Origin: Apostichopus japonicus
Taxonomy: Eukaryota > Echinodermata > Holothuroidea > Aspidochirotida > Stichopodidae
DNA length: 64,000 bases
Direction: 5' to 3'
Assembly: GCF_037975245.1 (NCBI RefSeq)
Contig: NC_092578.1
Span: forward strand, 16,188,821-16,252,820
The notes under the pieces were generated by a model, which saw only the letters and a program-made list of their open reading frames with translations, had not been told where the DNA came from and searched no databases. The position numbers and the translations under genes are program-made. Below, one piece after another: positions 7,014 through 57,865 of the stretch. The first letter of the stretch is position 1; each line of letters starts with the position of its first letter.

Positions 7014-10000
7014 ATGGCAGTCCTTATGGAGAGCAGACGACAAGTTTCGACAGGCTGTTCTCATTTATTTCGAAATCGCTTAGGCCTTCTTTGTTTACTT
7101 TTAATAAGTTTATTGCAGTTTCAGAGAACTCACGCTTGGGATAACACAGATTTCGAACTGTTTGACTTGGTTGAGGAAGTCCCACAGAATTTTTACGAAC
7201 TCCTTGGGTTGGATCAGGTAGGCTAAGCACAGTTTAGGTTTGCAGTAGCGGATTCACGATAGAGCCTGAGGTTCAATCTCACATGTATATTATTATTTAT
7301 TATAGGCCTAATCCACATTAGGCATATATACGGTCATCAGTGTTTACCCCAATTTAAGCATGTTTAATTTATCAGTAGAATGTGAACACTTTAACCGTTC
7401 AAAGTATTCCAAGATATTGAGCAATTAACTTCCTGATCTGGTCAAATACATTACATTGAGATATTCAGATATGTAGTGGGCCTATGTAAACATTATGCCG
7501 GTAGGCCAACCCCAAAAGTAAAGAAAGTGCTCAACTTCCATGTAACTAGGCATACAGTCAGTATACCAGATTCTACATTGACAGTCTGCCAAGTAAGCAC
7601 TAAAGCTGTTCTCTGACAATTGTGTATGTAGCTCCAACCTAAAATGCTTTTTTACAAATTACAGTTCAATGGGCACGCATTACTATATTTCTATGAACAT
7701 GTAGTATGTCCAACATTGCAGCCCTGGTTCTTGGATAAGAAATCTACTGCATCATTTACATGTTTGTTTTATACCCTAGTCATTACACATTACCATTGGT
7801 AACTTCACAAGTTAATTAACAAAAGTCAGCTAAGACCACTAAGCTTTGAAAATAAAGGTAAGAGAGGCAATGGTAAAGAACAAATCATACACAATGATGT
7901 GTAGTATGAAGTTGAGATAATATTCCTCCTAGATTTTTATAAAACATGGGCAAAATGATGGCATATACCGAATGTGCTAATCACTACGCAACAACTTAAT
8001 GTTTTACCTTTCTTTTGATACATTTTAGAGTGCAACCCAAACTGACATAAGGAGAGCCTACCGCCGTTTGTCACTGCAATATCATCCCGACAAAAACAAA
8101 GAAGAAGGGGCTGAAGAAACATTCAGGAAGGTAATGCAACCATATGAAACAAGAAGACTTTTGTCAGTTTTTTTTTTAGTTAAATGTGAAAGGCCATTCT
8201 CTTAAAGGCATTGAAGACTCGCCCCAAATCGCGTGCTGAGCTTTGATAAAGTTAACTTTCCGTTGCTTGCAAGTGAAGTAATGCAGACAGTATTGAAACG
8301 TGATACCTTGTATCTTTTATAGACCTGAGATGTCCATCCCTGCAATGTACACTGTGTTGTGGGTATTGACCATAGCTGTATGTATTGACTGTACCCTAGT
8401 GTCTAATTACCGACGGTAGCAAGCTGTGTGTGTGTTTTCTGGGATCGATGGTGGTGTCTAACATTTCTGTTACACCTCATTCGAAAATAGGTCAGATTAC
8501 GGGCATGAGACGTTTCTTTGTGCGCGAGTCTTCACACCCTTTAAGGTACCATTGTAAACGAAACATTACTGAACAAACATTTTTGATACATAGTGATGAT
8601 ACCAGTTGCGTTTGTGAAACACATGCTGCGATTTTTAATAAATACAAAATCAATTCCATTAATTACTGCAGGAAGGAACAATCAGTCAAATAATTTCTCA
8701 GAAAATGCTCAGTTATTTCTTTCTTTTCCTTTCCCTTTTTTGTTAAAGTTAGTTGCGGTTGCAGAAGTCTTGAGAGATGAAGACACACGAAAAAGGTTTG
8801 TAACTTTAGGGCAAAATTACAAAAAAGTCAAAGGATACATAATATTTGCCTCTTGTACATCTACATCGGTACTCTGCAATAGACTGGTGTTCATCTGGCA
8901 AAGGATGATTAGTGACATCACCAAGTCATTTGTTGCATATTAAATCTCTGCTAAGTACCTAGATGTTTTCACTTTGAAATTGTCAGCAGACGTTATTGAA
9001 ATCAATTCTGGAGGCAAAGAGTCTGTTATCGTTCTCGAAAAAAAACTATATTTGTAATCATCTGTTTTGAAGCAAGGTTGGATGAAATTAGCTTGATTGA
9101 GTTGTCTAGTTGTACGAGCTGGCTTCTTAATGTAGGATGGGATAGGAATAGCAGTCTTTCCATTAATCGCTGTATGAAGTACAGATAATCTGTTAATTTT
9201 CCTTCTGATATATAATGGTTGCCACTGGAGGTCAGTCATAATCCGAGTAACTGTACCTGGTTCACGTTTGTACTCATTCTTGACGAATCTCGCCCCTTTC
9301 GCTGGACCATTTCACATTTCATTTGTAATATTAGCTATTTGCCTATTTTTATTTATTTGATTTTGCAGTTGAAAAACAGAAATAATTAAAAGATAGAAAA
9401 GCCATTAAATTACAACTGTTTGCATTGTCTCAGCAAGGAAGTCAATTATATTCAACAATACAACATTGACGTAGACAGATCATTGAGAAAACAATATATA
9501 TCAGTGGAATATTTGGTGTGAATACGTCTAGAACAGTTGAATGACATTAACAAATTATTCGTTTGTCAAGTTATTTATAATAAATATAATAAAATTTTCC
9601 TGTTACATTTTCATATTTTCTAGATATGATGATATTCTTATCCACGGTTTACCTGACTGGAGGCAGCCAGTCTTTTACTATCGAAGGGTCCGTAAGATGG
9701 GACTGTTGGAAGCAGGGACCCTCCTTTCCATTATCTTGACCGTTGGTCATTATATAGTAATGTGGTCAATGTACTGGGAGAGAAAGTTTGAATTGGTAAG
9801 TTAGAAGAGGGAAATATGTACCATTTTCTCGCCCCCCCCCTCCCTGGTTCCTTCTGCTCTCTCCCTTGATTTCCTATCGATTGCCTTGTGTTGTTTCTTA
9901 AAGAATGATCCACGATTGATTGACTGCAAGCATCGTGGTGAAATTAGCATTCATTTTCTGCATGATGATTTTGCGATTTGTTCATTTGAAGCCAATATGG

Positions 10001-13000
10001 TTTTTACAGTTGACTTGTGGTACAAGAGAGTAAACTTTAAGGCATGATGGGCGATACCATAGATGAAAATTTACCAAATAAAACATTTATTATTCCTACC
10101 AGAATTTTAAGTATGAATATACCATATTCACCTGAAATTATTAGTTTAAGATAATTTGCAAATCTTGCATAATTCATGGTTGACACAATAGAAATGAAAA
10201 ATTAAGCAAAACACTTTTGATCAAAACACCTTCTTTGACATGCATGGCTGTTGCTTCCAGTTCACATTTGGGGTAATAACTTAAAACTATAAATATCTTG
10301 AAATAGAAAGGTAGAAATTTGATGGCTAATTTCACTAAGCTATTTTCATAATGTTTCTCTTATATATCTGTCAAAAGGTACAAATTAACCTGTAACATAA
10401 TCCTTTATCAGACTCTTTTTTTCAATTCCTTGAAGACATGCAAATGACAAAGAAACAATATGTTTGTGGATGAAAGCCTTCCAACATTTTATTTTTTAAT
10501 TTTTTTTTAGCATGGATCGCTTATGCAGGTGCATTTCCAATCTGTCACAATAATTTCATCTACTTTCCACGAACCTAATTTTATACTTTATGCCTTTATG
10601 AGAAAGAGAAATAATTATTGTTGTATTCATAGTTTATACTCTGCTTTACTTCCTAATCAGGAATCACTAATCAAGCCCAAAAAGGAGAAAAGGAATAAGA
10701 AAGTCTCGAAACTGTCCGATGATCCTAAACCCGATGCATATGCGATGCTAGAGGACCAATCATTTCTCCCAAAACCTCAAATCACCGACAGTCTCCCATT
10801 TAAGTGCTACAGATTGTCGAAAGCGAGCGTTTTCTTGCTGGTCGTGTTAGTCAAGAATCTTCTCGGGACCGTCAAGGAAAAAATGGAGGAAAAACCGGAG
10901 GAGGAGTTAGTCCCGTCCAGCGAGAGCGAAGAGGAAGAAGAGGCTGATCGTAAACCGAGAGTGAGACAGAAGTTTAATCCCGCTCTTTACGAGTACGACC
11001 GTAACGTGTCGTTGGATCATCTGGATGCATTGAAAGTCGTCCCGGAGGAGATTAGAAACAGACAAGAATCGTCGGCACCTAAAGAGAACAAGGTACAGTC
11101 GGATGCAGTTCCTTGTTTGGTGAAACGTTTTATCGATTTTTACGATTTTGCAGCAGGGATGATGGTAAAGTTTGAATTTTGAATTTTTGAATTTACAGAA
11201 TGACATCTGGACACAAGAGGAAGTCAAACTACTCATCAAATCTATCGCCAAATACCCCGGAGGAACAACAGACAGGTGGGACAAGATAGCGGCCGAAGTG
11301 GACAGACCAGTCAATGTGGTAAGAAAAATTAGACAGATTGTGTATAAAGACAGGAAGTGGTTAGACTAGTCACATACCGTAATAAGTATCTACCCCTTCC
11401 CCCTCCCCTCCCCCTCAAAAGAAAAGACACAGCTGGAGTTTGAGTAGACTGCTGGATTGGTCAATACTAAAAGATTAGTAGACAGATGGGATGGAAGATT
11501 AAGGTGGTGACTGAATGGGGTAAAAAATACTCTGCTATAAGAAACACAGGTGGGGAATACAACTTAAGTATGTAAACCAGTCACTGAGATAACAGCAATA
11601 GACATATGGGAAGCCAATAGAAACAGCCTTTATTATTATGGCATTAGTTGGAATTGTCTGTAAAAACTTCTTGAAATAATATTCAAAATTTAGTAATATT
11701 TAATAACGATAAATCTCGCATAACATCAACAGAAAGGCCTTGATAGAGTTGAATGGAGCAAGGGAACAGCAACTGAGAATGTAAAACATGTGGCGAACAA
11801 ATTTACTATAAGAGAAATAGTCAAACAGATAATCAGATAATAAAAGTTAAAAAAAGGGTTGATATTACCCTGGCAAAGAAAAAAAATAATTTCTGTACAG
11901 TTTAATGCATTGATACTCTTTCCTAAGTTGTACATTTCTTCTCTCCAGGTTACAAGGAAAGCCAAAGAAATAAAAACAAAAGGCTATGCTACCGCTGTGG
12001 ATGCCAGTATACAAGGTTTGTTTGTACACTATAAATCTATCATGATTAGAGTTGTAATGGGGACATCCACATATGATGTAATAACTGCTTACTTTGTTAA
12101 CCTGACCATCACCTCAAGTATCTGTTTTGTTTATTTGCTTGTGGTTGATTGTAAATTAATAGATTTAGAAGTATATTAGTGTTAAGATGGAAATGTCCAA
12201 GATAAGTTCTTCTGCAAAGAAACAAAGGCATAAGGTAAAATGAGAGGGGATAAAAATGGTCCATGTTATGGAACTTATGGGAAGACTGTAGACTTCTGTG
12301 TAGCTACTGTCATTGATAAAAGAGAGGGGATAGGCCGATAGGATCCATTTCATCTCCAATGCACCAACATATGTATGTAAGACAATGGGATCCCATGGAG
12401 GTAAAAAACAAAACTTCTATTATGAAATCAGGGTATCGTCAGTTATAAGAGTTAATTTGGGCAGACTGGGTAGGTCACAGTTAACATGTGCTAACATATA
12501 TACATAGTACATTAGGATATCATGGGCACCCCAAAACAATATTTCCATTGTTATTTTATTATTTTATGATAGATGACTAACATCATGTTGTAAGCTGCTG
12601 AGGATTAACATGATATGTTAGGACTTGTCCATCTTGATAATGGAATATTTTACATGGCTTTGTATTAAAGCACTGGGATGTCATAAATAACAATACTTCC
12701 ATTGTTCTATTGTGATAGAAGGCTACCATCATGTTGTAAGCTGGTGAGGTTGGCATGTAAATGTTAGGACTTGTCAATCTTGATAATAGAAACTTTTACA
12801 TGGCTTTGTCACACACTGGGATGCGATAAATAAAAATTTAAAATAGCTTCATTCTTATTTTGTGATAGAAGACTACTATCCTGTATTGATTTATGCTGAC
12901 AAATTACATCAGGATTTGTCTATGCTGATAATGGAAAGTTACACACACTTTTGTACTGCTGCTTCACTTTACTATGCAATTTTAATGCAGTCTTGAAATA

Positions 13001-14143
13001 TTGGACTTCCCCCTGAATTTCGGCGGAAAAATTACTGGTCATTCATTTCTCTCTTGATCTGTCAAAAAGGAATAACCGGTGGAGTAAGTCACACTGTCGT
13101 AAATAAACAAACTGGAGAAGGCGACACGGACTGTATATCAATAGCTTCCACTCCACTAGAAGATCAACCAATCACATCGCAGGTAGCTTCCTATGACTAC
13201 TTTGAAGAAGAAGAAGATGAAAGTACGAACAAAAAGAGGAAAAGGAAGAATAAATCATCGAGAAATCTTCCTAGAACAGAAATGATTGTAAGCAATCACA
13301 AGGAGGAGGAGGAAATCGATGCTAGTCAGGATAAAAATATAAAGAATGTCGAGACTTTAGGTGGTAAAGCAGGCAAGTCAAAGACAACTATGGAGCCTGT
13401 CGAGGAGTTAGTGTTTGATGGGGTGGAGTCATGTAGCTGGACTCAGAGACAACAGAAGGTCCTGGAGAAAGCCCTACAAGTGTACCCCAAAGGAACCCCC
13501 GAAAGGTGGGACAAGATAGCATCATCTGTACCCGGGAAGAAAAAGGTATGTCAGAATGATTTAGTTTTTACATTTTATTATCTGATTTAGTATGAAAATT
13601 GTGCACAAATTGAACTAAACTAAAACTGAAAAAGGTGCATTAAATGTAACACTGTGAATGAGTTTATGAATTGGTATTCAAGACTGTCTTTATTAATTTG
13701 ATGTAAAGATGATTTTAGAAAGGATAATTTGGGTTGAGTTTTTTTTTTCAATAGTTATTTGTAAGTTTTTGTATTCCCTTTCTGTTTTCCATGCAGTTTT
13801 GTGTTTTGAAGGGATCTTATGGTGTTTTTAGAACTGTACAATAAGGTATTATACGGTAACAATCTTTGAAAAGTACATGATTGGTCTCAGTAGGACAACC
13901 TAAAAATTCCTCTGTAGAATGTAATTTTGTGGGTTCCAACCTCACTTTGGTGTTAAAGACCCACATGCCCCACTTGCAACTCACCACTTCTTCTTGCCCA
14001 CTTCCAGGCATATTTCGGAGACTGAACTCTTTCCATAATTATATGTCAATTTTCCTCTATTCGTCATATAGGAGGAATGCATCGTAAGATATAAAGAACT
14101 GGTGGAAATTGTACGAAGGAAGAAGCAAGCATCGGAGAAATGA
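7014..14143 (+). CDS. DNAJC1: DNAJC1, ER-membrane J protein with two SANT domains
   Basis: Nine coding exons: 7014-7217, 8029-8130, 8749-8795, 9624-9795, 10661-11092, 11199-11318, 11949-12015, 13070-13545 and 14072-14143. All phases agree and the product has 563 residues, close to the human protein (554). Residues about 24-41 form a hydrophobic signal or anchor; the J domain follows (about 59-118) with the HPD triad at 87-89 that stimulates Hsp70 ATPase. Then comes the family block GLPDWRQPVFYYRRVRKM and a membrane span at about 147-168. An acidic/basic linker leads to SANT1 (about 320-359, WTQEEVKLL) and SANT2 (about 502-553, SWTQRQQKVLEKAL with CIVRYKELVEIV across the last intron). In mammals this protein (MTJ1) places its J domain in the ER lumen to work with BiP, with the SANT part facing the cytosol. 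The first ATG, at 7014, directly precedes the hydrophobic segment. It is convergent with MLLT10. Confidence 0.97.
8202..8544. mobile_element. TTAA-flanked MITE in DNAJC1 intron 2
   Basis: The two ends are inverted copies: the left begins TTAAAGG and continues TTGAAGACTCGC, and the right, read in reverse, begins TTAAAGG and continues TGTGAAGACTCGC. The TTAA at each border (8202-8205, 8541-8544) fits a TTAA target-site duplication, as in piggyBac-type transposition. The 343-bp interior has no transposase reading frame, so it is non-autonomous. Confidence 0.72.
8943..9312 (-). mobile_element. 5'-truncated LINE fragment (C-terminal end of a reverse-transcriptase ORF)
   Basis: The minus strand reads through a stretch typical of the end of CR1/L2/jockey-class ORF2 proteins: VQRKGARFVKNEY, then MTDLQWQPLYIRRKINRL, a segment with PIPSYIKKPARTTR, and TDDYKYSFFSRTITD-SLPPELI. 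Only the last 120 or so codons remain; the reverse-transcriptase core is absent. It lies antisense in DNAJC1 intron 3 and does not interrupt an exon. Confidence 0.8.
12500..12960. repeat. Degenerate tandem repeat, about 145-bp unit, DNAJC1 intron 7
   Basis: The words CATCATGTTGTAAGCTG (12581, 12725), TTAGGACTTGTC, CTTGATAATGGAA and TTTTACATGGCTTTGT recur with a spacing of about 140-146 bp across roughly three copies, the last one diverged. Nothing coding is seen. The remainder of the 1-kb intron (12016-13069) shows no other feature. Confidence 0.75.
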
Positions 14144-16132: not shown

Positions 16133-16267
16133 GTCTATACAAGTGTATAAATAGACATATGCACAGTATTGAACATAAATCACTGTAGTTGACAGGAAAT
16201 ATGTCTATACAAGTGTGATAAACATATGCACAGTATTGAACATAAATCACTGTAGTTGACAGGAAAT
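16133..16267. repeat. 67-bp direct duplication
   Basis: Two adjacent copies begin GTCTATACAAGTGT and end GTTGACAGGAAAT (about 16133-16199 and 16203-16267). The copies differ by a small indel near TAAATAGAC/GATAAAC. The repeat is intergenic. Confidence 0.85.
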
Positions 16268-16766
16268 GTAATAAAAGGGTACAGGGCTTTAAGGACACTC
16301 ATATCAAATTTGTTAACTTGTTTGTATTTATTATATATTTTTTTTATGCCTTTACAAATTTATATGAAAAATATATAAGAAAACATGTTTCCCTTTGATT
16401 CATTCGTATTGGGTCCCTAAACCCTCGACTATACATCAGTACAAAGCCAAAACAACAGAGAAAGATGTTACTGAAGACCATGTAGGATGATGTAGGCATT
16501 CTCTTATGGTTTATATTAAAGATATTTCATTATTATTATAATTGATTAGTTTTAAGACTTTCAGATGAGGGATTAAAACTTACTTCACTAGGAAAATTCA
16601 TCACAAGAATTAAATTTTGATTTTAAAGATGATACATTTCTGATCAGTTCTGCATTGCCTTCTTTTTTTAGACCAGAGAGTATGCTTATGTTGATGACAT
16701 TTTGAACATGATACTTCAAAGAAATAGATGTGCTCTGGAAATATATCAGGTTTCTATTTTCTCCAC

Positions 16767-17018
16767 TTAAAGAGTAGTCTGTATAGGCCCCAAATTATAG
16801 CATGCTATAATTGCTAGAAGTTTTTTTCAAAAAGTACCTTCCTTGAGGTTTTTACTCTCCAAATTATTCTCAGACATTCTAAATGAACACTCAAGATGTT
16901 GAATGTCCCAGTGAGGTAAATTTCCTCCAGGGTGATAACAAAATAGTTTAAGAATTTTGACCAAAGGTGACCATGTTTGAAAATCTGGCTTATTGGAGCC
17001 AATACAGCATACCTTTAA
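16767..17018. mobile_element. TTAA-flanked MITE, copy A of the GCATGCTAT family
   Basis: The left end reads TTAAAGAGTAG and then TCTGTATAGGCCCC and TTATAGCATGCTAT. The right end is the inverse (GGAGCCAATACAGC then ATACCTTTAA). TTAA borders sit at 16767-16770 and 17015-17018. The outer sequence is shared with the element at 63258-63608, so this is one dispersed family. It has no coding capacity. Confidence 0.7.
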
Positions 17019-22865: not shown

Positions 22866-22871
22866 TTTATT
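22866..22871 (-). terminator. MLLT10: Candidate MLLT10 poly(A) signal
   Basis: AATAAA on the minus strand about 150 nt downstream of the MLLT10 stop codon (23018). A second AATAAA lies at 22522-22517. Which one is used cannot be told from sequence. Confidence 0.4.
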
Positions 22872-22969
22872 ACCTTGTGAAATTACCACCAAAATGTTTC
22901 TTAAACTTGATTGAAAGGTTTCCAAAAGAAATGTCCAATAATGTGCAGAATTTGAAGTCATTCAAACAG

Positions 22970-23027
22970 TCTGTTGTTAAAAGCTCTGTTAGCTCTTGTC
23001 TGTTGTTAAAAGCTCTGTTAGCTCTTG
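22970..23027. repeat. 29-bp tandem duplication over the MLLT10 stop codon
   Basis: Two exact copies (22970-22998 and 22999-23027) carry TTAAAAGCTCTGTTAGC. Read on minus, the first copy in transcript order contains the stop TAA (23020-23018); the second lies in the 3' UTR. Confidence 0.92.
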
Positions 23028-26000
23028 TCTGTGCCATTTTGCTTCTTTTCACCTCGTGGACTCTGAAAAGCAGAAAACAGAAAACGTTGTCCTAAAATCG
23101 GTGGCGTTCACTGGAAACGAGGATGAGGGCGAGCAGGAGAGAGGCTAGTACATCGGATCGGTTTTATATCAACAAAAAAAGTATTAGTGCACAGAGGACA
23201 ATACAGTGACTGGCAAAAGAAGGAGGGGGGAAGGAACCACAAGGGAAGTGGAGTAGAGAGGGAAGAAGGAGAGGAATAGAGGGGAAGATATGAGGGATAG
23301 ACAGGAAGAGGTGAGGGAAAGAGGAGAGGGAAAGAGGAGAGGATGAGGTGAGGGGAAGAGGAGAAAGGAAGAGACGGAATGAGGCGAGGGGAAGCGGAGA
23401 GGGAAAGATAAGAGGGGAAGAGAAGGGAAGTGAGGGGAAGTTAGGGGAAGAGAAGGGGAAGAGGAGAGGGGAAGACGTGAGGGAAATAGGAGAGGGGAAG
23501 AACATAGGGGCAGAGAGGGCATGAGGAGAGGGGAAGAGAGGGGAAGAGAGGGGATGAGGAGAGGGGAAGAGAGGTGATGAGGCAAGGGGAAGAGGGGATT
23601 GGAAGAGGAGAGGGGAAGAGAGGGGATGAGGAGATGGAAGAGGAGAGGGGAAGAGGAGAAGAGGAGAGGGGAAGAGAGGGGATGATGCAAGGGGAAGAGG
23701 TGAGGGAAAGAGGAGAAGAGAAGAGGGAATGAGACAAGGGGAAGAGGAGAGAAGTCAAGAGGAGAGGGGAAGAGGATAGTGGATGTGGGAGTAGAAGAAG
23801 AGGGGAGAAGAAGAGGGGAAAGGACCTCAATATTTACTAATTATGATTTTCTTTTGTGTCTAAACAAATCAGGAACAGCAAACTAATGGTTCAAACTACC
23901 ACATAAAAGTAACAGAAGTCCAATTTGATAACTATAATAATGATGTTATCATCTAAGCCTCTCCCCATCAAACATCTTACCTTGTTTCTGGCTTGCTGCT
24001 GACCTTGACCTCCTTCAGAATGACTTACCATTGTCTTAGCTTTATTCATTTCTCCGTGGCTTGCATGCGGGAGCATCATTTGATAAACATGATGTTGCTG
24101 CTGTTAAAACAATGTTAGAAAGTTGCATTAATTTCATTTATTTTATCATTTATTTTTTTATTTGCTTACAAAGAGATGAAAATTATCAGCCATTTTAGAG
24201 ATTCCACCTAAGATGTGGGCAAAGTAAATGCACTGGTGAGAATAATGAAAATCTTGCCTTTATTCCTTAGAGACAGGAGGTTGAAATAAATCTCATCTTA
24301 ATTAAAGAAATTACATGAACAAATTAATTTGAAAGAGAGAACTTTTATATTATTTGTGATATGAAGTTGGATTTCAAATGATGAATATACCAACCAAAAA
24401 ACCAGTCAGCTTTATGATTCCTTGCCATACAATTTGCTCAAAATTCCACATAACTATCTGACTATTGTAGCGCAAGTGAGTAGAGCTAGCAAATCAGCTC
24501 TGACACCAACCATCACTTTTATGTCAGTTATTAACTCTACCACCATCAGCAACTTGGAAAAATTTGAAATCTTTCAATTTCATTATTGTCCTTTTGACAC
24601 AGTGCCTAAACTTTGCAGTACTTATCAACGAATGGGAAAGAAGTGGGGAGCAGAGAGGGGGGGGAGGGGAGGAGCTACTTACTGGGGTCATATTCGGTGG
24701 CATTATGGTTGCCCCTGGTAATTGGTGGGAGGTGAGCACCGTTAGTGGAATCACTGTTTGGTTTTGCATAGATTGGGCCACGGAGACTTGTCTCGTCAGA
24801 TCTGCTCGTGCCTCACTCTCACTGAGGGAAATAAAACATCAATTAAACATCAAAAGGAGATGTTAATTATTAATTAATCAAACAAGGTTCATCAAACTAA
24901 GATATTCTATTTCACTAAGTTTACTATGTTGTATATTATTTATACTAAATTTAGTTTACTATACTGGTTTATAATATCATACCCATTTCATTAAATTTAG
25001 CTTCATGACTTTTATAGAACACATGAAGATTGTTGGGAGTTTCTCTTTCAATATAATTAATTTTTAAATTTACAATGTGTGCAGTACAAAAGTTTAACTA
25101 TCTTTTGCTCATAATGTTATTATTGTGAGGAATTCTCAAGTTCCAACAACCAGAACCATCCAAATTTCCCTTCTTGATATATCATGTTGCAATGTTTTCA
25201 CATTCTAACTAACGCTGACCTTGAATACCTCCACTATGAACAAACAGCTTTGACTACTCAATATGTGGCCATCCACATATGTTGACAAGTCATTCATACT
25301 TTGACCTCTGGTGACCTTCAACCACCTTTGACCTCCATTCAATACACTTAACTGTGGCAACTCAATATGGGGCCATTCACACATAAAACTCAAGATTCAT
25401 CCAAGTTTCCCTCCTTGAGATACAATGTTGTCAAGAGTTTCATATTTTGACCTCTGGTGACCTTGAATCACTTTTGACCTCCACTCAATACAATTATGAA
25501 CTCCATCTACTCAATATGGGGCCATTCACACATAAAATTTAAAGACCAACTATGGAGACTTTTTGATGAACATAAAATCCCACCATTTTGCATGTATGTA
25601 ATCCTTAACTCACTCCAATTACATTGCTGTAATTAACTTTACCAATTTCGGACGTTAAATACGTGAAAAATGGGAAGAAAAGTCGGCTTTTTAGGAAACC
25701 TATTTCAGACATTCCTGAAACATTCCTAAGACTACCCAAAATGTCCATTTTCGTGGTCGTTTTTTGATGGGTTATAGTAGGTTTTCGAAGATTATTTTTT
25801 ACACATGTTAATTATGGGTATGTAAACTCCCAAATTAATGGAAAATCCCCCCAAAAAATTTTGTCTCCATAGTTGGTCTTTAAAGATCCATCCATGTTTC
25901 CCTCCTTGAGCTACTACAGTAACAAGGTTTTCATTTTTTGACCTCTGGTGACCTTGGGTCACCTCTAACCGCCACTAAATACAATATATTTTGTCCAGAC

Positions 26001-29000
26001 AAAAATGAGGCAATCCACACCAAAAAACTTCAGATCCATCCAAGATAATCTCCTTGAGATACCATGTTAAACAAGTTTTTCATATTTTGGCCACTGCTGA
26101 CCTCAAAATCAAAACTGAAGATATTATTTTTTGCCTACCTTTTTGGTACTGCTGATGCTGCTCCCCCCTTGTCTCCTCCTCCTGCGCGAGGGGTGGTTGA
26201 ACGTCCGTGGGAGGGGGTTTTCCTACCCTGTGAGGACCCCTGCACAGCTCGACCACCCCCCACGTGACCACTGCCATGAGAATGCAAGGATGACTGACCT
26301 GTTGCACTGTTCTGACCTGTGAACCAAAGTTTGGAAACATCGGAGATTATCAAAACTATTACAAGCCATACTCAACTTTCCACCAGTATTTCCTCCTTTC
26401 CAAATAAAGGTCAATAATTTGACCATAACCAAATAAAATCACCATATTAAAAATAAGGATAACGCAAATCATTACGTTCAATCAAAATTAAAAGCCAAGG
26501 TTTTATCTGCTATGAAATCATTATTGTTCAGGTGTTTGTTACAACCAGACTTGCTGTGATTCCATAGGGGAACACCTATTCTAGCATAGTTGCTTGTACT
26601 CGCCTTGCACTCGTACTCATAGTGGGGGGGTAATTTGGAAATTTAGTCTAGATACTATCGCAAGACTAACTACTTGCACTTGCAGTTAGAGCCTTGCAAT
26701 AATTGTACTCACACTTAATGGATATGCCACATGTACTCTTTGTACTGGCAATAATTACCGGGTCTTTCTTTTCAAAAAGTCACAGAATCTCTTGGATGTA
26801 TTGTTAGATGTTTGTTATCGACATTGTTGCAATAGGGAAATTTCCTATCTGGCATTTGTGATCACAGATTTTTACCATGACCAAGCTTTATCTTCTCTAT
26901 TAAGCCTGTGAGATAGAACGATCAATCGACCGTAAAACATTTAAACTTCATGCTTGACTTTTCTATGTTATACAAGAGGGATGTCAAATAACGATAATGT
27001 TGTTAGGTTGCAATTTGTTTGACTGGATGACCACAGATTTCAAAACAATACTGTCTGTAAGACGTACCTGTTCCTTGTTTGTTCTGGCTGAATAACCGAT
27101 GATGTTGTTCAGACGTCATATGCGATGCCTTCACACCGTGCAAGTCACCACCCGTATGGGCGGCTCCTACGTACTGCCGATAGCTACCACCTCCCGAGGA
27201 CCTATCCGTCCCCTTCACTCCGCCAGGATGGGGCCCATGGCCAGATGGTTGCATCACTGAGTTGGCAAAGGATGGTGACGTATTCTTGCCCTGTTGAGGT
27301 CCCGTGGCATTCTGGTGAGTCGTCACAGCTCCGGAGGAATGATTTTGATTGGTCGAGGAGGCAAAGTGGGCGTGGTATAAATTTGATGATGATGAGGTAG
27401 ATGGACTTGCAGCATGGTTTCTGGCAAGGTTGTGGGGGGATGGGGTATGTCCCTGTGGGTGGTGATTCGAGGGGGGAGAGGCGTAGTTGGAATTGAAAGA
27501 CTGGTTGAGGGACTGGTGCGAATGAACAGAGTGTCCTGACTGGTTTAAGCTGCTGTGACTGCTGCTCAAATCCTTCAAAAGATAAACAATAAATCATCAA
27601 AATAATTGATATAAGCTCAATTTTTTCTGAAAGCACCCTGAACTATTTCCATTGAAACAAAATTGTTTTTCCCTGGATGAGATTTCATAGAGGCACACAG
27701 ATAACATTTTTTTTTTAAATGTTTTTCATTCAATATTTGTTCCAATTTCCTACTTAAAAATTGGGAGCCATATAAATATAAAAACATTTAAATCATTGGT
27801 ATATAGTTTACTTTACATCATCACCTCAGGTAAAATGAAGAATACAGAAACAAAAAACATTTCACTGCCAGTGTGCAACTATGACATCACACCTGTTTGC
27901 TGCAGGCTCACCTATGGTTTAAACTCAGACAATACCAATGTTCAATATCTCAATAATGTTATGCAAGCGATTGCTTGTAAATTTCAACCAGAGGCTTAGA
28001 ATATGTTTCACTTTCATCAATGAAAGAAACACATTTTTCCTCTGGACTTTCATTTTAAAGCAACTGGTTGAATATTATTCCTAAAGGAAACATACCCTCA
28101 TTCATCCGTCCCACCAGATTTGCTTTACTTGCTGAGATTAGGTTCCTTGGAAAAGCTGCGTAGTATTTTATTCATATCCATAAAGGTTCGTTAATTTGTT
28201 AATTACCATTCATTGAAGCCTTTTTATTAATAAAAAAAGCAATTTGCTGCAAAAATCTGATTTCTCATGATTTTGCATGTTAATCTCATACTTACATTAC
28301 TCTGCGAATGTAACACATTATTGTATCTTGGACTCCGACTCCTCGCGTTGGCATCGCCACCCGCAGCCATGCCGAGCTGAGCGTTATGCATTGCATTATG
28401 GGTCAGGGGATGCGCCAGACGGGTGTTGACGGTAACCAGGTGGTCCCTCCTCTGTAGGAGGGCACTGATGTGCTGCTCCAACCGAAGATTCTCCTCTCGG
28501 ATTTGATGGAGGCAGGAAAGGAGAGAAGCGACTGCAAAAAAAACAAAAAATTAATGAAAATGTAAAGCAGTTTAGTCTCATCAGGGAAGCTTCGATGGTA
28601 TTAAGAACATAAATAAAAAATCTGTAGAAGTATCAATAGGTCAGGTATAGATCCATGCTGATACCGATCATATAAATGAAGCCCAAAAAAATTTAAATAT
28701 ACCGTATTTGTATATATATGTATTCAAGTATATCAAAGATACTTTGGATACGACTTTACTTACTGTACTTACAAATATAAATATGTCGTATATGTATTCA
28801 AGTATATCAAAGATACTTGGTCTACTAGTTGACTTGCCGACACCTTTCACCATCCTCCGAACCGTCTCTCATGTTGCTCGCAAACGTCACTCCTAGTGTA
28901 ACAGTTTGGAGTATTCTGGCAACCTTTGTAATGCCAATGTAACATATTCAAAGTTGAAACAATCCAAAATTAGGACATAACTCAAAAATGTAAATTTTTA

Positions 29001-32000
29001 ACTAAAGATTGATTAAACTGTGAAACAATCTCTTAATCACTGCTTTAGAATTCTCTATCGTCTAGAAGTACAAGAGCCATTTTTCGATGCTACAGTTGAA
29101 AGATATGCAGTGATGAAAAGCTAAATGGATATGGTGATCATATCATTTGAGGTAACTTGGATAATGCATTAAGGAGATTAATAATGCTGAACCCTTAACA
29201 TATACCTAATACAGGTGGAAGCAACATGCCCCCATGTCAAGGCTCCCCTGATCATTAATTGTAATGAAGGGAATAATTCATTCTTCACATTTTCTGAGGT
29301 TTCATGAATGGTTTTCATTGTGAAAAAGTACTGAAAATTGTTAAATGGTGGGAAAACAAAAATCTTTGCAACTGTGTAGTAATCTTTTACCACTTTTGAA
29401 TAGCATTTTACCCATGGGGATATAAATACAAGATGAATTATTCGTAGAGATAACAGATTTGTGTTTGCTATTAAATATCAACTTACTGTCGAGGTGGGAG
29501 GAAGAGGATGCCTGGTTCATTAAGAAATCAGCACTTTGGTCCCATTGCTTCTCAAGGAGAGCCTCCATCGTGGTAGGGTTACTGCCAAAGAAAAAGGGGG
29601 TCGAATACCTGCTTGAACAACTATTAGCATCTCAGGCCTTGACTTCATTTCTTAATTCTATTTTCTACATTTTCATATATACTGGCAACTGACTTCCATC
29701 CTTTCTTTGCCATTTTTAACTTTTTATTTAATTTTTATTATCATTATTGCTATTTTTATTTTTAAGATATATTGCCAAACTGCGGATCTGTGGTTTCACT
29801 GAAAATACATGTGAGACTCAAGTCTGCAGCAATTGGCAGTCGCAATACCCAACTGACATGGTACGATATTTATGGCCGCTGTGGGAACCACACACATGAG
29901 AAAAACACAAGAGTATTAACACAAGAGGGAAAGTTACTTAACAAGTTATTTAAGTAACAAGACAATACCACAGCTTAATCAGTCTCATGATAATGAAGAG
30001 ACATGTATATGAGACATCTCACCAGTTAGTATGTCAGTAACTTACTTAAACAGTCAACTTACTCATTTTTTTTGTCTGAGAATGGACGACACTGGCTGGG
30101 TCTTGGAGGTCCGGAGAGACGTCCACTCTGACCAGCGGTGTTGAAGACATCTTGTATGGCACTCTCCTCTACAGGAGGTGATGAGGCAGAGGTAACATAA
30201 TTTGACAATTTTAAAATTTGCACAAATTCAAAATTGGTTCCAAACATGTAATATACATGTATATTATTAAACAATGAGAGGTAAATGTGGCTAAATAGTA
30301 TTTACTGGCTAAATGCCAGTCGATTTATAGAAAGAGGAAAAACCAAAAGGGCACTGGCAGTTTCTACCAGTTAACATAAATTCACGACACAAATCACCAG
30401 TCAAAGAATTGGCATGATTTCCATACCTAACTTAAGCCCTGTGTTATTGCTTTATCATCAGCAAATATTATCGAGCTCTTCCCATAAGCCTGTACAGTAA
30501 ACTGATGTGTGCTGTAATTCAGGAAACTGCCAGCGACAAACTTGATTTAAGCTAAGCAGGTTAAAAAGTAGAATTCAATAATTCTTGTTCATGACCAGAT
30601 GGATCCCACATTGCTATTTAGGACCAATTTATAGAAAAGTTCTAAAAACAAAAATTTCAGCAAGCCAAACAGTGATGACCACTCAACATTCATAATTAAA
30701 TGAAATAATAAAACTCTCTCTTTCCCGATAGGTTTATCGGTCAGCTGTAGACTACTCACCGGGGCTCATCCCATACATCTGAGCTGACACGCCGTAGTGA
30801 CCGACGGCGCAGCTCATGGCTCCGTACCCTCGCCCTTGACCGCTAGATCGCCTCCTCTTCTTCTTGGACGGTGCGTCGTCCGGATCCCGCGTCTTTCTCC
30901 TCCCTCTCGACGCCTTTCCCTGCTTTTTGTGCTTCCGTCTCTCGTGCTTATCGATTTTCAACTCCGGCATGGGTACGTCCGGCGATTCCGGATGCATGAT
31001 TATCTCCGTTGCATCCGTCTTGCTTCCGGTGTCCGCGTCCGCGTTTACAGAGGCCACGTCCGGGTCCTTGTTGCCGAGGCTGCCGACCGGCGTGGTGACC
31101 CTCTCGTTGTCAGTGACGTTCTCCACGTCGATCGATACGGACGAGTTGTGCGAGGCCGTTGGAAGATCTTTCACCGTTAGATTAGCTGTGAGTACCACCG
31201 GCATGTTGGATGCCGGGGTAGGAGTCCTTGATGAAGGGGTGGGAGTCCTTGAGGAAGGGGTAGGGGTGGAAGTCCTTGACGTTTCCCTAGAAGACATTCT
31301 CTTTGGTCTCTCGACAGTCTGTTGTTCGGGCGTGGCCCTACTGTCTACCTCCAAGGACGGCGAGGGGGCGTGCTTCGGTGCGACCATCTCGCCGACCTCC
31401 GCATCTCCGATAGACTTAGGACTATCGACAGACTTTGGACTGTCTGCCGCACTGTCCGAGGTCCCCTTGGGAACCCCTTTGGTGCCCCTCTTCTCCTTCC
31501 CTGACGTTTTCCGTAACTTTGAGAGAAGAGATCCCTCCCCACCAGAGTTATTACCACCACCGACTGCTGCTGTGATGATAGTCTCCTTAAAGTTGGCATT
31601 TGTAAATTTACTTGAATGAGATGAAGATGAGTTTGATGCCATATCTTTACCACTCCCTTCTTTATCCTCCTCTTTCTCCTCCTCCTCCTCCTCCTCGTCC
31701 TCCATCTCCTCCTCCTCCATCTCCTCCTCCTCCGGGATGACTTTCTCCTCATCCTCGGGAGAAGCCTCGTCCCGGGGAGGTTCCACCGTGGGGGTTACCA
31801 CCGGTGGTGTTAAGGCTTGCATGTTTGGTCGCTTTTCGGCTTTAGTTCTCACTTTATCAGTTTTTGATATTTTCTCCACACTTGTATCCTTTTCCGGCGT
31901 GCTGTAGTTACTACCGAGGGGACGGAATGGAGGAATCGTCTTGATATCCCGATCTTTCCTCTGGGAGCGAAAGAAATAAGAGGATTCCTACACAAAGTTT

Positions 32001-35000
32001 ATCATATTGCTTTAACCCATTGGGTGTTAAAAATCAACGAAAGATATCTCCACTACTATAGCCGAGTCAATTTCTGCATAAAGTGCCATTTTTGCTATTG
32101 GAAACTAGTTTGCAACAATTTACCAAAGAGTACTGGGCAGTAAACCACATGTTATGCATGCAATGATGAAACTAAGACACCCTCCTAATGTTCTTTTTGA
32201 CAGTGATAATGAGGATTTCAAATTTTTCACTTGCTTTTGAAGGTTTACTGCTTCTAATATTTTGTTACAGTAGCATTAATTACATGCAAGCCCAAAGAAC
32301 CACACACTTGGGAAGATATGTTTTATAGATTTTATTTTATAGATTTTATATACATATACAGTTCTCTAATGTAACGCTTCAAAGCATGTGTGGGAAAGGT
32401 ACCACTATCCCAATTGTATTAGATAAAGGTTTCAAATTGCTCACACCATTACTAAAAGGGCTTTGAGGGGTAACATAAAAGTATCACAGAAAGGTTTTAG
32501 CACACTACAAAATTGTGCTTAAAAAGTTTTCTGAATTTGACCTATACTTGACCTCAAGTGATAAAGATTGTAAAACAAGGAGAGTTCTTGTGCTTCACAA
32601 AGGTGGATCTACATAACAAACTCAAAAGTTCATCTAAGCTTTACCTTTGCAGCTATTATAATTTCAAGCATTCAGACTGTGACCTCTCATGACCTTTGAC
32701 CTCCACAAAAAACAACAGGGTTCTGGTACTAACTAAGGTGGATCCACAAGAAACATTTGAAGTTTCAACAAAATATTTTGATTTCCCATTTTGACAAGCC
32801 AAGTCATCACACATACATTTACATACACTCATACAAGTGTGGTCAAGCAAGGCAGAGATAGTCTGAAATGTGTCTGAATACAAATTGATTCCACTTTTCA
32901 AAGAGGAACTAATTTTGTTATCAAATAACAACAGAGAGCATTGATCAAAGTTACCAGTTTTTGGTAGTGGTGAGTACAGTATCCTGTATATTTCACATTA
33001 TCTGTGTAGTGTCCAGATTCTTCACACAGTAAACCTTCCGACTGAGCACTAAAATGAAAATTGACAGAAATTTTAAAATAAAACTTTTGATTCACAATGC
33101 TGCACATCATAAAATGTAATTAAACCTCCCAAACATGAATTCTTATTCACTGTAAAAAGTATCACAACTACAATACTAAAATGAAAGCAAAATAAAATGA
33201 AAGAAAACGAGCGACAACTTTACCAGTCTAGCGCTGTAAGTGAACACAACATAATTAAAAAATGAACATACCCTGTAGACAACTGGTTTTGCACTTTACA
33301 CAAATTCTTGGCAAGAATCCAAGAATCTTTTTGCACAATTGCAATTGTTAACATGGCCTATTCAGACTAAGAAACAATGCACCGCAGTCAAACACAATGT
33401 AACAACGTAACCACGTAACAACGTTTGATAAAAACTATGTATATAACTACAGTAGTAACCTATCGCACTAACTTGCACAGTGCTTCTGAGGGCTCCAGTG
33501 AGAATAAAAATTACAACACATGGAAAGCACAGGTTACAAAATCACTCCAAAACTTGTGCTTCTTTTAAGAAACTGCAAGCAATATCATGGATGCAATCGG
33601 ATTCCTATAAACCATCTGTGACTGACGAAAAGATTGTATTTTTCGGAAAATCGGCCAGAATCGATACTGGTGATATCGACGCAACACTAGTAAAAAACTT
33701 CAAAATTATTCCCCTGGGTGGGGGTGGGGGGAGGAGGCACTTACCATGTGACATGAAAGGATTGCTTGCAGCCATTCCTGTTACAAGTCATACATGCACC
33801 TGTAGTAGCTTTACTCTCCCGACCTTTGGTTTCGCAGAGGAAGCACACCTGCGGACAAGACAAGCGCCAGCCTGTTACGCTCGTACGTATATGTAGAACA
33901 ACAAACATATTATGATGGCAAGATTACATGACCTTTTGGCTAAAAGCCCCTTTGGATGCAGTTGACACAAGTAATATTTGGCAGTGAAAGCTCAAAGTGA
34001 CGACCAGCTCACACAGGAGTAAATTAGTGGCTGCACTGTTCAAAGCATTTTAGACATTCATGAATACCTTTAATCTAATTGCTGACAACAGTTCAGTTCA
34101 GTATAGGTTCTCTTTACAAACAACAACAACAAAACTGTGAAATATCTTAAACTATGTGTAGCATCTGTGCTGAGGCAAATTCTTTTTAAGCCTATTGCAG
34201 ATAAATCATTCACAATGCCCTTGTTAACTTATTTAAAATAGTTTTATTCAAAACTGGACTTAATGATCTATGTCGGAAAAAGAAACAAATTTCCAAGGCG
34301 AATGTGCCATGGCATGAAGCTCATGCCATCTGCAAAGTCTGGACTTATTTTTTAATGGTCGTCCAATGGTCCGATACGAACAAATTCCTATTTTGTCCAT
34401 CCAAAGTCAGCTTTGATGGATGTATGTTGTTTACATCACATTCCAATTTTACTGCAACCAAATACGTAAAATGATAAATTGGTTACGCTCTGCCCATTTG
34501 GAGACACTGAAATTAAACAAGATAGTCGTAGGCCTAGGCCTAAAAACCAATGGTTATTGTTACCAGTCGAAAACCTGGTATGCTATTCTCCAAACCGACA
34601 AATATCTCCTACAGTGAACATGGTTGGTCAATTTTTTTTTTTTTGGCTAACATTCTTCGTTACTTTGTCCGAGGGACAACCAAAAAAACATCCCTCTCAA
34701 ATTTGCCCTGAAATTTAAAAATATCTGGCTGGGATTTCCTTGATGATTAATATCAGAACGTATGTTAAGTACTGGCTGGAGCTGTTGGAAGGATGGTTGG
34801 GGGTGGGTGATTGGTTGGGGAGGGTGATTGGTTGGGGAGGGTGATTGGTTGGGGAGGGTGATTGGTTGGGGAGGGTGATTGGTTGGGGAGGGAGGGAGGG
34901 TGATCGACTCACTTTGTTATATCTGTCATGAGGAACTATCGACAGTTGGATTGGTTCCATGGATGTAACATTTCCAAAACGAACTTCTGGGATATAGAGG

Positions 35001-38000
35001 GCGCACACAACGTGAGCCCATCCTGCAAAACAAAATTAAAGAATCAAAGGGTAATTCATATACAATGTTTATCAAGAAATCCAATGATGATAAGAACCCA
35101 TAAAAGATGACTTTAGGCAGAATTTCAGTCTTGATATATTTTTTCGTCCAAAGAAACGGAGAACTCAAAAGTAAAAGTTTGGACAGCTATTCTGATTTTC
35201 GAGTTCTTCACCTTTAAATACGCTTTAAACTCTGGGATGCTCCTCCGAAGAGCTACATTGATTATGATGCTGTCAGCTCCTCGGTGCGGGCCTAAATGTA
35301 AATGTGTTAATCCATCGTTTTTGCTAAATTTAAATTACCCAACCAAAACAATGTTCTTTTATAAACAGAGCACCTTTTGAATGACATTCAACACAACTTG
35401 TCCTTGACAAAGTTATACTACACTGTGAACGTGTCATCTGACAAAACTTGACAAGTTCTATCCAATCAATCTGAGAATGTACTTACCTCCATTATCTGTT
35501 CTCTTAAGGGCACCTTCCTTCTGAGGACACAACTCACACCTCTGTTAAACAAATGAAGTGTAGAAAAGGTTCTTTACACAAATGTCTTGACACTAACATC
35601 GCACATCCTAATGAGAAACTTAAGTTACAAAGTAGTATTTTAAGGATATGAGGCAGTGAAACAAATAAAAAAAGAACAAATATATATATATATATATATA
35701 TTTGTACTTTCCTTCGATGTTCTTTGCCATAATTGTGCCCTTTGAAACATTAAAAAAATTTTCTTCAAATTCTAGCCACCAAAACTGAGCATGTATTGTT
35801 CCCCCCCCCCCCCCCCCCCTTTCAATATCATGTCAATTCCTGGTTACATTAAAATTCATGGGTTATAGTATAAACTATTACCAACCCATCTGAAACCCTA
35901 GTTCATGGAATGTGAAGTGACAGAAAGTTCCTATAATACATATTTTACACCCTGAGCACCTCCCACACGACCCCTCCCCCCAAGAAAAAAATAAGATAAA
36001 ATTCTTCAAACAACTCACCACTCTTGCTGCTCTTTCCTGTGATTCACACTTCCTACAGTACCATGGTCCAGTTGGAACCGAGACTATTCCATAACATGCT
36101 ACCAAAGAAAGCAAATAACAAATAGAAAACATAAACCAATTTGAACTCATGCAATTTTGTCTTTGAAATGCATTTCACTCCAAAACACAATTCTGACAAA
36201 TCACAATATATTCTACTGTGTATAATGAAGTGTCTCAATAGAAAACCATATTGTTACAAATGTAGCGATCCTTAGATTGGATAACGACCTCTCCAAATCC
36301 TATCCAGTCCAAAAACGTTATTGGGTATTAAAACTGACATCATAAACATAATCTGACAATTTTATTTTTCATTCTGTAATCATAGGAAGAGTCTACGTAT
36401 AAGTCTGTACAAGTTTGTCCGGACATTCAAGAAAGAAATTGTTACAATCCTTCATAAAAATCTGGAATCATGTCCATATATATAGTTTTTTTCATTACGG
36501 TGACCATTCATAAATGTACAAGAAAGATTAAATGGAAAGTTTTATGATGCATACATAATTTTTTGGAAAAGAATGGTGTATTAGGCTTGATCACAAAAAT
36601 TTGACAATTAAATGTATTTTACTGTGGAAAGCTATTTGCTAGTAATTTTAAAAAGGCCTGCTGTGCTATTTCAGGTAATGTCACTGTACTCCCTCTGTAA
36701 AGCAGTGTTATACAGAAGTTCCTTGCATGGACAGTGAGGTTTTGTTGGTGCCATTATTGCAAAGGAATGTACATAAGATGTGTATGGATGTTTCAAGAAA
36801 GTTGGCCGAGCATTTCTAGCCTATATATGTACAAGGAACCCTTTAAGCTTTCACCAAGGTCATGATACATGGCAGAGTCACTGCACATGATATTTGCTTG
36901 CATTTTGTTAATTGTTCACATATCTATAAACTTCATTCTGGATTGCATTTTACTGCAACTGAATAACAAAACATGGCTGTTTTTTAAGTAGCAGATGCAG
37001 TAGTGGGGATGTCAAGGTGAAGAAACATTTGTTTTTCAAATTGCCCACAACATTTCTTACATTTCAAATTTTACCGATCCGGATTAATTTTCTAACTACA
37101 TAATAGTGGTGCTGATTCCAATTCTCTAATCACTTATCAGAAAGACATGTAATATTTTATAAATCATGATTTCAACCACCACCCCTAGAAGGGTGTGATA
37201 TGTGGAAACCTTTTCTTTTTCTGATTTGTTGCCCAACTGTGCAGGATTCACACATTATGCATATCAATAGGATTAAAACCCTTAAGTGACAGATGCAATC
37301 CTCTGTTCCTTTTTGAGCTTATTTGTATTATTTATTAGGCCCTAGATATCCAAATGAAATGTTACAAGCTAATTGTGGAAATTAACTTGCTGTGTTACAT
37401 CCCATGAAATTCTAACACCTGTTGCTACACTACTGTATCTAACTTGGGTCTAGCCAAGGGTTAACTTAGGCCCTAACTTACTAGGGGCTGTTAAACAACA
37501 AATAGTTAGGCCTAGGCTAGCCTACAGTATTAGGAAAGGTATTTAAAGCATAACAAAAATAGACATTGCTGAAACTTTGCCGTAAATATTACCATTCAGA
37601 GCTTTTGTTGTGGTTGGTTCAAAATTTAATATATTTTATGAGTTACATGGTGAATGTTTATTGGCCATTACCAAAACTGATATGTACACTGTATTCCTAA
37701 CCATACGTCATCAGTTTTTATGATTATAGTGTCAATAGCTTGCGAACATTTGGCGGCTATATGGTTGCCAGGATTAGCCCCAAAATATTACACATGTACA
37801 TGTACATTCCTGACAAGTCAACTTATACATTTCAACTTAATTCATTAAACCTATTAGTGTATTTATATTTTATTTGATAGAAAACCAACCCAGAATGCAC
37901 ATGTAAGCTAGTGTCATATCTTTCTGAATTGTTTTTTAACAACTTCTAGCCTAATGTACAGTGGTGGTAGGGCTAGGCCTATGTACCACTGTCTTCAGCA

Positions 38001-38800
38001 ATTGCTCACGTTTGCATAAGCCTTGTGACAGTTTAACTTTGAATAGAAGTTAGTGATTCATTTCCAAATTGCATTATACATGTTGTTTAACTTATTCCAT
38101 TCATTTCTTACGGAAATTTTTTTCTGAGTTTGGATTTGATCTGACATTGGCTTACATCAATGTAATAACAAGTTCGGGATGAAGTGTATTGGTTTGAACT
38201 GGGTTTACTCCAGTCACCAGACTTAAATCAGGGTGTGTTTTCCTTAATGGTTTTTGATCAAACTGTCAGGAAATGTTAAAGTCCAAACTATCATTTATTT
38301 TTCAATTAAAAAATCGCTTTATTGACCTTGCATTACACTAGGCTAGACCTACCAAACCAATCCTGCTTCTGTAGCCTAGTGTGGGCCGAGGCCTAGTGAT
38401 AAGAAAAGTGTGATGAAACTATAGAATTTATATCATTGGCTTTCTAGACAACCTTAATCATACCAGTGTTTCCGAAAAGGCGATAAGTAGGAATAATTTT
38501 TTTGGCGATGTTAATTTTTCATTTGCGAATTGCAAACGCTGCTGCATATTCGTAATTTACGCATATATGCCTAAGCCTAACGTTAGACATATGAATAACA
38601 AAACACGATCCGAAACTGAACTTGTTTATAGCTTTAGTACGTATATTTGTACGTTAGGTTAGCAAACCTAACGTTACAAACACCAACAGACCTTGGTGTA
38701 CTGCAACATTACACCCGTGACCGTCGCAATATACTAGTGGATTTTCTGTCCAACCACGCTCATCACCACAAACGCAACATCCACCAACCATTTCCTTCAT
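23018..38800 (-). CDS. MLLT10: MLLT10/AF10 histone-reading DOT1L cofactor
   Basis: Fifteen coding exons on minus: 38800-38692, 36098-36019, 35541-35487, 35022-34913, 33848-33745, 33048-32955, 31960-30760, 30168-30063, 29581-29487, 28531-28296, 27572-27068, 26316-26139, 24821-24683, 24100-23981 and 23062-23018. All phases agree, giving 1,058 residues (human about 1,070). Residues 5-184 form the PHD-zinc knuckle-PHD module (GGCCVCGDERGW, CYGIVSVPTGPWYCRKC, CELCPQKEGALKRTDNGG, WAHVVCALYIPEV, GACMTCNRNGC), which in AF10 reads unmodified H3K27. The long exon is acidic, then has SKFTNANFKE and a basic cluster (RGRRK, KKKRRR). Residues 626-633 are the octapeptide EALLEKQW; a zipper follows with L/I at 655, 662, 669, 676, 683 and 690. 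This OM-LZ binds DOT1L. The C-terminus is Q/S/H-rich. An in-frame TGA precedes the ATG, so the N-terminus is shorter than in human. AF17 (MLLT6) shares the layout; one ancestral gene would serve both. Confidence 0.95.
23218..23822. repeat. 600-bp polypurine tract in the last MLLT10 intron
   Basis: The plus strand is almost only A and G, built from degenerate GAGGGGAAGAG units with occasional GGGATGAG variants. On the MLLT10 transcript it is a polypyrimidine run, 156 nt upstream of the terminal exon acceptor. The C/T-only open frames on minus are by-products of composition and not genes. Confidence 0.93.
25140..26110. repeat. Degenerate tandem array with TGACCT direct repeats, MLLT10 intron
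   Basis: Units of about 130-150 bp carry CAATATGGGGCCATTCACAC, CATCCAAGTTTCCCTCCTTGAG and TTTGACCTCTGGTGACCTT in that order, about five times with drift. A MITE (25539-25883) interrupts one unit. In three units TGACCT-CTGG-TGACCT recurs exactly (25302, 25448, 25939). Confidence 0.85.
25539..25883. mobile_element. TTAA-flanked MITE nested in a repeat unit
   Basis: Perfect inverted ends AGACCAACTATGGAGAC and GTCTCCATAGTTGGTCT sit directly inside TTAA at 25539-25542 and 25880-25883. Removing the element and one TTAA rejoins CATAAAATTTAA with AGATCCATCC, which aligns with the uninterrupted unit (CATAAAACTCAAGATTCATCC split by eye). The 345-bp element has no transposase. Confidence 0.85.
28715..28819. 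repeat. Direct repeat pair of about 28 bp, 75 bp apart
   Basis: TGTATTCAAGTATATCAAAG with flanking bases occurs at about 28718 and 28794. Each copy also contains the imperfect palindrome AAGTATATC-AAA-GATACTT. It lies in MLLT10 intron 9 (between 29487 and 28531). Confidence 0.8.
32520..32780. repeat. Related TGACCT-bearing repeat in MLLT10 intron 6
   Basis: TGACCT occurs at 32538, 32549, 32680, 32690 and 32697, followed by CTCCAC as in the array at 25.1-26.1 kb. It looks like one or two diverged members of the same family. Confidence 0.6.
34797..34893. repeat. 18-bp minisatellite next to an MLLT10 donor site
   Basis: Five near-exact copies of GGTGATTGGTTGGGGAGG. The array ends about 20 bp from the donor of the MLLT10 exon 35022-34913, inside intron 4. 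The plus strand has many G-runs. Confidence 0.92.
35683..35819. repeat. (TA)n and poly(C) simple repeats in MLLT10 intron 2
   Basis: An alternating TA run lies at about 35683-35702 and an uninterrupted run of 19 C at 35801-35819. The exact lengths may be affected by sequencing slippage. Confidence 0.85.
36099..38691 (-). other. MLLT10 intron 1 (2.6 kb), no gene seen
   Basis: A large first intron between the first and second PHD exons. I find no exon-like block with family similarity. GGCCTA words gather near its 5' end (37.5-38.6 kb) and a perfect 10-bp hairpin lies near the donor; both are reported as findings. Confidence 0.7.
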
Positions 38801-57741: not shown

Positions 57742-57865
57742 GGACTTGTCACAGTTACTGCTTAGCTCTGTATTAACAAAGAAAAGGAAAGCATTTAATC
57801 GGGGTGGCAGTCCTTTGAAGAATATCACATGGATCAAAAGTATATGAGAAAAGAACGGGGAAGAA

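What the first reader, a model, noticed from the sequence alone, without database searches (positions are those of the whole stretch)
7014..38800. Tail-to-tail DNAJC1-MLLT10 linkage matches the human locus
The sequence shows DNAJC1 (plus) and MLLT10 (minus) as convergent neighbours with no gene between them. In human, MLLT10 and DNAJC1 are also adjacent and convergent on 10p12. If this is an invertebrate deuterostome, the pair has stayed linked in the same orientation for over 500 million years, which suggests constraint such as regulatory elements of one gene lying within the other or coupled 3' ends.
Basis: partly seen in the sequence, partly recalled or inferred. Interest (0 to 1): 0.7.

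Follow-up and report, generated by a model that had tools for sequence, protein, structure and literature searches.

The report
Convergent DNAJC1 and AF10 gene pair
Two ordinary animal genes, a chaperone gene and a chromatin gene, sit tail to tail here much as they do in mammals; this is probably an old neighbourhood that was simply never broken up, and nothing found shows that it is kept for a purpose.

Summary
DNAJC1 lies on + (CDS 7014-14143) and one AF10/AF17 (MLLT10/MLLT6-type) gene on - (ATG at 38800), convergent, with no recognised gene between. Identity is strong: the PZP module is 146 of 184 residues identical to human AF-10, the OM-LZ region matches AF-10, and the + gene has one J and two SANT domains. 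Coupled 3' ends gain no support: about 9.8 to 14.3 kb with tandem-repeat arrays separates the coding ends. Mammalian adjacency is supported by passages in print; the human strand orientation is recalled. No animal genomes could be searched and the window's own genome was unreachable, so the cross-phylum test was not run and the deuterostome premise is untested. A null model gives 1.7 chance adjacencies per genome pair with full scrambling, 47 within 24 linkage groups, 59 within 30. Against the reading, vertebrates kept fewer ancient blocks than shuffled genomes give. Shared descent is likely but unproven, and selection for linkage is undemonstrated; passive retention is the default. Interest is low to moderate.

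The parts
7014..14143 (+). DNAJC1 orthologue: hydrophobic leader, J domain, hydrophobic segment, two SANT domains, lysine-rich C-terminus; about 9 coding exons as joined by eye
   Evidence: exons, splice sites, stop; Pfam DnaJ 5e-22, Myb 5.8e-12; PDB
14072..14143 (+). last coding exon of DNAJC1 with stop codon
14144..23890 (.). intergenic stretch; tandem repeats at 16.1, 18.4-19.0 and 20.8-21.2 kb, purine-rich array at 23.25-23.8 kb; no gene recognised
23894..28403 (-). stretch in which the 3' end of the AF10 gene may lie: probable Ser/His-rich ORF 27006-27593, unproven candidates near 26.3, 24.8 and 24.1 kb
   Evidence: no Pfam match for the 24.8 and 24.1 kb candidates; codon score inconclusive
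28404..38800 (-). AF10/AF17 (MLLT10/MLLT6) co-orthologue: PZP exons 32955-38800, large low-complexity exon about 30.76-31.97 kb, OM-LZ exons near 29.5 and 28.5 kb

Best explanation
Two ordinary animal genes, DNAJC1 and the AF10/AF17 gene, are convergent neighbours in this genome as in mammals. Shown: the identities, the orientation here and the lack of a recognised gene between them. Inferred: the adjacency comes from a common ancestor. Inferred with less certainty: it persisted mainly passively, because few breakpoints fall in a given short interval and gene order in slow-evolving animals is reshuffled mostly within ancestral linkage groups (recalled); no regulatory or 3'-end coupling is needed.
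For: Identities. Mammalian adjacency: a sheep table row lists MLLT10, DNAJC1, COMMD3, BMI1, SPAG6, PIP4K2A (PMC11591336, passages seen); human SNPs assigned to MLLT10 and DNAJC1 both lie at 10p12.31, 22.03 and 22.32 Mb (PMC4406179, passage seen). Null (10,000 genes, 20 repeats): 1.7 chance adjacencies (0.1 convergent in both) with full scrambling, 46.6 (3.25) within 24 linkage groups, 59.3 (3.9) within 30, i.e. about 0.5-0.6% per neighbour pair under the generous models run. Against coupling: a gap of about 9.8 kb or more holding repeat arrays and a probable retroelement fragment inside a DNAJC1 intron (8.94-9.31 kb; by eye, no Pfam match), so insertions were tolerated.
Against: No third genome was examined, so passive retention and selection are not separated, and chance re-linkage inside a linkage group is not excluded. 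In a 49-genome survey vertebrates lost 84% of the blocks new in the bilaterian ancestor, and the vertebrate ancestor inherited 70 blocks, fewer than the 110, 120 and 124 given by shuffled genomes (PMC8851819 section 5), so vertebrate agreement with old gene order is not above chance for such blocks (three or more genes, looser than strict adjacency). From the other side, the same survey finds 256 new bilaterian blocks against 45, 48 and 56 in shuffles, which leaves room for constraint rather than passive retention.
Confidence: 0.5

Rival explanations
1. Genomic regulatory block: enhancers of one gene (AF10, or another neighbour) lie in introns or the intergenic stretch of the other, so breaking the pair is selected against.
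For: Known class: conserved adjacent pairs kept because regulatory regions of a target lie in an unrelated bystander (PMC8851819, background passage). The deep age, if real, fits.
Against: No conserved non-coding sequence could be sought; neither gene is a typical patterning gene (recalled); the gap bears repeat arrays.
Confidence: 0.18
2. Chance re-linkage: the two genes share an ancestral linkage group and became neighbours independently here and in vertebrates.
For: Scrambling inside linkage groups gives 47 to 59 shared adjacencies per genome pair by chance, 3 to 4 convergent in both. Vertebrates inherited fewer ancient blocks than shuffled genomes give (70 against 110, 120, 124). The flanking genes here are not neighbours of the pair in human (recalled).
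Against: Per pair this is about 0.5-0.6%, and four neighbour pairs were on view in the window, so about 2% that any would match by chance.
Confidence: 0.18
3. Coupled 3' ends: overlapping or mutually regulating 3' UTRs keep the genes tail to tail.
For: Convergent orientation here and in human (recalled).
Against: About 9.8 kb or more separates the coding ends. The first AATAAA past the DNAJC1 stop is at 15312 (1169 bases). Poly(A)-like hexamers are common in the stretch (22 on +, 28 on -), so they do not fix either transcript end but show that the transcripts need not meet.
Confidence: 0.05

Closest known systems
Human/mammalian MLLT10-DNAJC1 neighbourhood (10p12.31)
   Same: Same two genes listed side by side; same tail-to-tail orientation (recalled)
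   Different: COMMD3, BMI1, SPAG6 and PIP4K2A follow in the sheep list; here a WDR24 gene lies beyond DNAJC1 and a CCDC148-like gene beyond AF10, so only the pair is seen to be shared in this window
Ancient metazoan microsyntenic pairs (Irimia et al. 2012, content recalled; paper not held)
   Same: Two unrelated genes adjacent in distant animals
   Different: That work compares many lineages; here two, one of them unnamed. Whether the pair is already in its list could not be checked
Genomic regulatory blocks
   Same: Unrelated neighbours kept together
   Different: No conserved non-coding elements, target gene or contacts shown

Membership tests
DNAJC1 orthologue | One J domain followed by two SANT domains | tested here: met
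DNAJC1 orthologue | ER leader and transmembrane segment | tested here: inconclusive
   Hydrophobic stretches read in the translation; no predictor run
DNAJC1 rather than DNAJC2 | Closer to DNAJC1 in every shared domain | tested here: inconclusive
   First SANT matches DNAJC1 2cqq; second SANT scores higher to DNAJC2 2m2e (67.6 bits) than to DNAJC1 2cqr (55.7 bits), over stretches of different length; no tree built
AF10/AF17 (MLLT10/MLLT6) | PHD-knuckle-extended PHD (PZP) module | tested here: met
   E 4.9e-107 to AF-10, next family (BRPF1) 6.9e-41
AF10/AF17 (MLLT10/MLLT6) | Octapeptide motif and leucine zipper (DOT1L binding) | tested here: met
   AF-10 6jn2 E 7e-10; binding itself not tested
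MLLT10 rather than MLLT6 | Closer to MLLT10 than to MLLT6 in a tree | not tested
   None of the 23 sequences is named MLLT6/AF-17; no tree built
Deeply conserved microsyntenic pair | Adjacent in several distant lineages | not testable with these tools
   No animal genome collection is held; the genome search unreachable
Genomic regulatory block | Conserved non-coding elements of a target gene inside a bystander | not testable with these tools
   No related animal sequence to compare

The most novel reading that the evidence does not exclude
DNAJC1 and the AF10/AF17 gene have been kept convergent since at least the bilaterian ancestor by selection, with control elements of the AF10 gene inside DNAJC1 or in the gap between them, and this linkage survived vertebrate genome duplication only in the copy that kept DNAJC1.
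Probability: 0.12. Interest if true: 0.45.

Novelty: new member of a known kind. Interest (0 to 1): 0.25.

Why it matters
MLLT10 is a leukaemia fusion partner and DOT1L cofactor (recalled), and risk variants at 10p12.31 are assigned to one or the other gene. If the pair were a conserved regulatory unit, variants in DNAJC1 introns might act on MLLT10. As it stands this is one more likely case of old gene neighbours.

Tried and rejected
A further gene in the gap: 16 of 17 ORFs of at least 70 aa in 14.1-23.1 kb went to Pfam; the ORF at 22870-23091 (-) was left out, as were the low-complexity ORFs of the purine-rich array. A codon-usage score trained on the recognised exons did not separate well: PZP exons scored -0.06 to 0.11, the best of 52 gap ORFs of 50 codons or more scored 0.17 (22993-23145, +, overlapping a 29-base tandem repeat) and the second -0.02; for the 27.0 kb ORF the two stop-bearing frames scored higher than the open one. 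It was not relied on. Rfam and tRNA scans: nothing. One scan of prokaryote genome contigs for stray animal DNA with the PZP protein: 7 pattern matches, none a relative.

Literature, all ten searches: DNAJC1+MLLT10+synteny 0 papers; ancient microsynteny terms 61 papers, 20 listed, 2 opened (PMC8851819 abstract, sections 5 (part 1 of 2) and 6, and passages; PMC9023564 passages); DNAJC1+MLLT10 30 papers, none on gene-order evolution by title and start of abstract (passages of 4 of the 30 seen); DNAJC1+microsynten 3 papers, of which 1 was opened and its three matches are DNAJC19 or its pseudogene; MLLT10+microsynten 0; COMMD3+BMI1+DNAJC1+synteny 0; MLLT10+amphioxus 0; PIP4K2A+PIP4K2B+MLLT6+MLLT10 0; conserved microsynten+gene pairs+amphioxus+passive 0; CACNB2+CACNB4+Hox+paralogon 0. 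An idea that the pair belongs to the Hox-bearing linkage group rests on recalled human map positions only and was not pursued.

Full report
Observation. The window carries a DNAJC1 gene on the + strand and an AF10/AF17 gene on the - strand, facing each other. DNAJC1 starts at 7014 and its stop codon ends at 14143; exon pieces with splice sites were read. The protein joined from them has a J domain (5e-22) and two Myb/SANT stretches (5.8e-12) in Pfam. In the PDB sequence search the first SANT matches 2cqq and the second 2cqr, both DNAJC1, although the best single hit is the second SANT of DNAJC2 (2m2e). The leader and the hydrophobic stretch after the J domain favour DNAJC1 over DNAJC2, by recalled architecture.

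The - strand gene starts at 38800. Its PZP module, joined from six exons, matches human AF-10 over 184 residues (E 4.9e-107; the next family, BRPF1, 6.9e-41) with 146 of 184 identical. The octapeptide-leucine-zipper region matches AF-10 (E 7e-10). In an invertebrate this gene would be the co-orthologue of MLLT10 and MLLT6 (recalled). Its 3' end is unsettled: 28.4 kb is the end of the last exon with homology evidence, a 196-aa ORF at 27.0-27.6 kb is probable, and candidates at 26.3, 24.8 and 24.1 kb are unproven.

Between the genes. From 14144 to about 23.9 kb (as far as 28.4 kb if the unproven exons are not real) nothing recognisable was found: no Rfam family at gathering scores, no tRNA, and no Pfam match above a curated cut-off in 16 of the 17 ORFs of at least 70 aa in 14.1-23.1 kb. 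Tandem repeats fill parts of it (16.1, 18.4-19.0, 20.8-21.2, 23.25-23.8 kb). Coupled 3' ends are therefore unlikely, though transcript ends are unknown: poly(A)-like hexamers are frequent on both strands, the first past the DNAJC1 stop after 1169 bases.

Match to mammals. A sheep selection-scan table lists MLLT10, DNAJC1, COMMD3, BMI1, SPAG6, PIP4K2A together (PMC11591336, passages), presumably in map order. A breast-cancer table places SNPs assigned to MLLT10 and DNAJC1 at 10p12.31, 22.03 and 22.32 Mb (PMC4406179, passage). That the human genes are convergent is recalled; no call shows it. Beyond the pair the neighbourhood differs: a WDR24 gene lies on the DNAJC1 side (one ORF, PDB WDR24, E 1.6e-16), and a CCDC148-like gene (name recalled, no Pfam match) and a dual-specificity phosphatase (Pfam DSPc 1.5e-17; DUSP19 by recall, not the best hit) lie on the AF10 side.

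Chance. In a simulation of 10,000 genes (20 repeats), two fully scrambled genomes share 1.7 adjacencies, 0.1 of them convergent in both. With scrambling confined to 24 linkage groups they share 46.6 and 3.25, with 30 groups 59.3 and 3.9. One given neighbour pair thus has about 0.5-0.6% probability of matching by chance in the generous models, and the four neighbour pairs on view about 2%. Pairs are known to give more false positives than blocks of three (PMC9023564, passage), and a survey of 49 genomes found that the vertebrate ancestor inherited 70 ancient blocks, fewer than the 110, 120 and 124 of shuffled genomes (PMC8851819 section 5).

Mechanism. The same survey finds that blocks new in the bilaterian ancestor exceed shuffled expectation (256 against 45, 48 and 56), and some such blocks are attributed to regulatory blocks or coexpression. 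Nothing found here places this pair in either class. Passive retention is the simplest account and is marked as inference.

Novelty. No held paper found by the searches listed under Tried and rejected discusses the deep linkage of the pair, as far as titles, abstract starts and the passages seen show. The main published list of ancient pairs (Irimia et al. 2012, recalled) is not held, so prior description cannot be ruled out.

Noticed in passing
1500-3650 (-): WDR24-like WD40 gene, divergent from DNAJC1; one ORF (2131-2367) matches GATOR2 WDR24 in the PDB (E 1.6e-16).
   Followed up: partly
40300-46300 (+): CCDC148-like coiled-coil gene (name recalled, no Pfam match), divergent from the AF10 gene; about 1.5 kb lies between the AF10 ATG and its first exon as read, its true start not determined.
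   Followed up: partly
53600-57930 (-): Dual-specificity phosphatase gene with an intact HCxxxxxR motif, perhaps DUSP19.
   Followed up: partly
8943-9311 (-) and 57950-58243 (-): Protein fragments that look like the C-terminal end of LINE-type reverse transcriptases, the first inside a DNAJC1 intron; by eye only, no Pfam match.
   Followed up: partly
23254-23819: Long purine-rich tandem array just beyond the possible AF10 3' end; gives long low-complexity ORFs on the - strand.
   Followed up: no
25246-25985: A unit of about 103 bases present three times, the others 64% and 82% identical to the reference copy, in the AF10 3' region.
   Followed up: no
34794-34892: 17-base G-rich tandem array, 97% alike, in an AF10 intron right beside a PZP exon.
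   Followed up: no
1-388: Tandem array of 143-base units, 95% alike, at the window edge.
   Followed up: no
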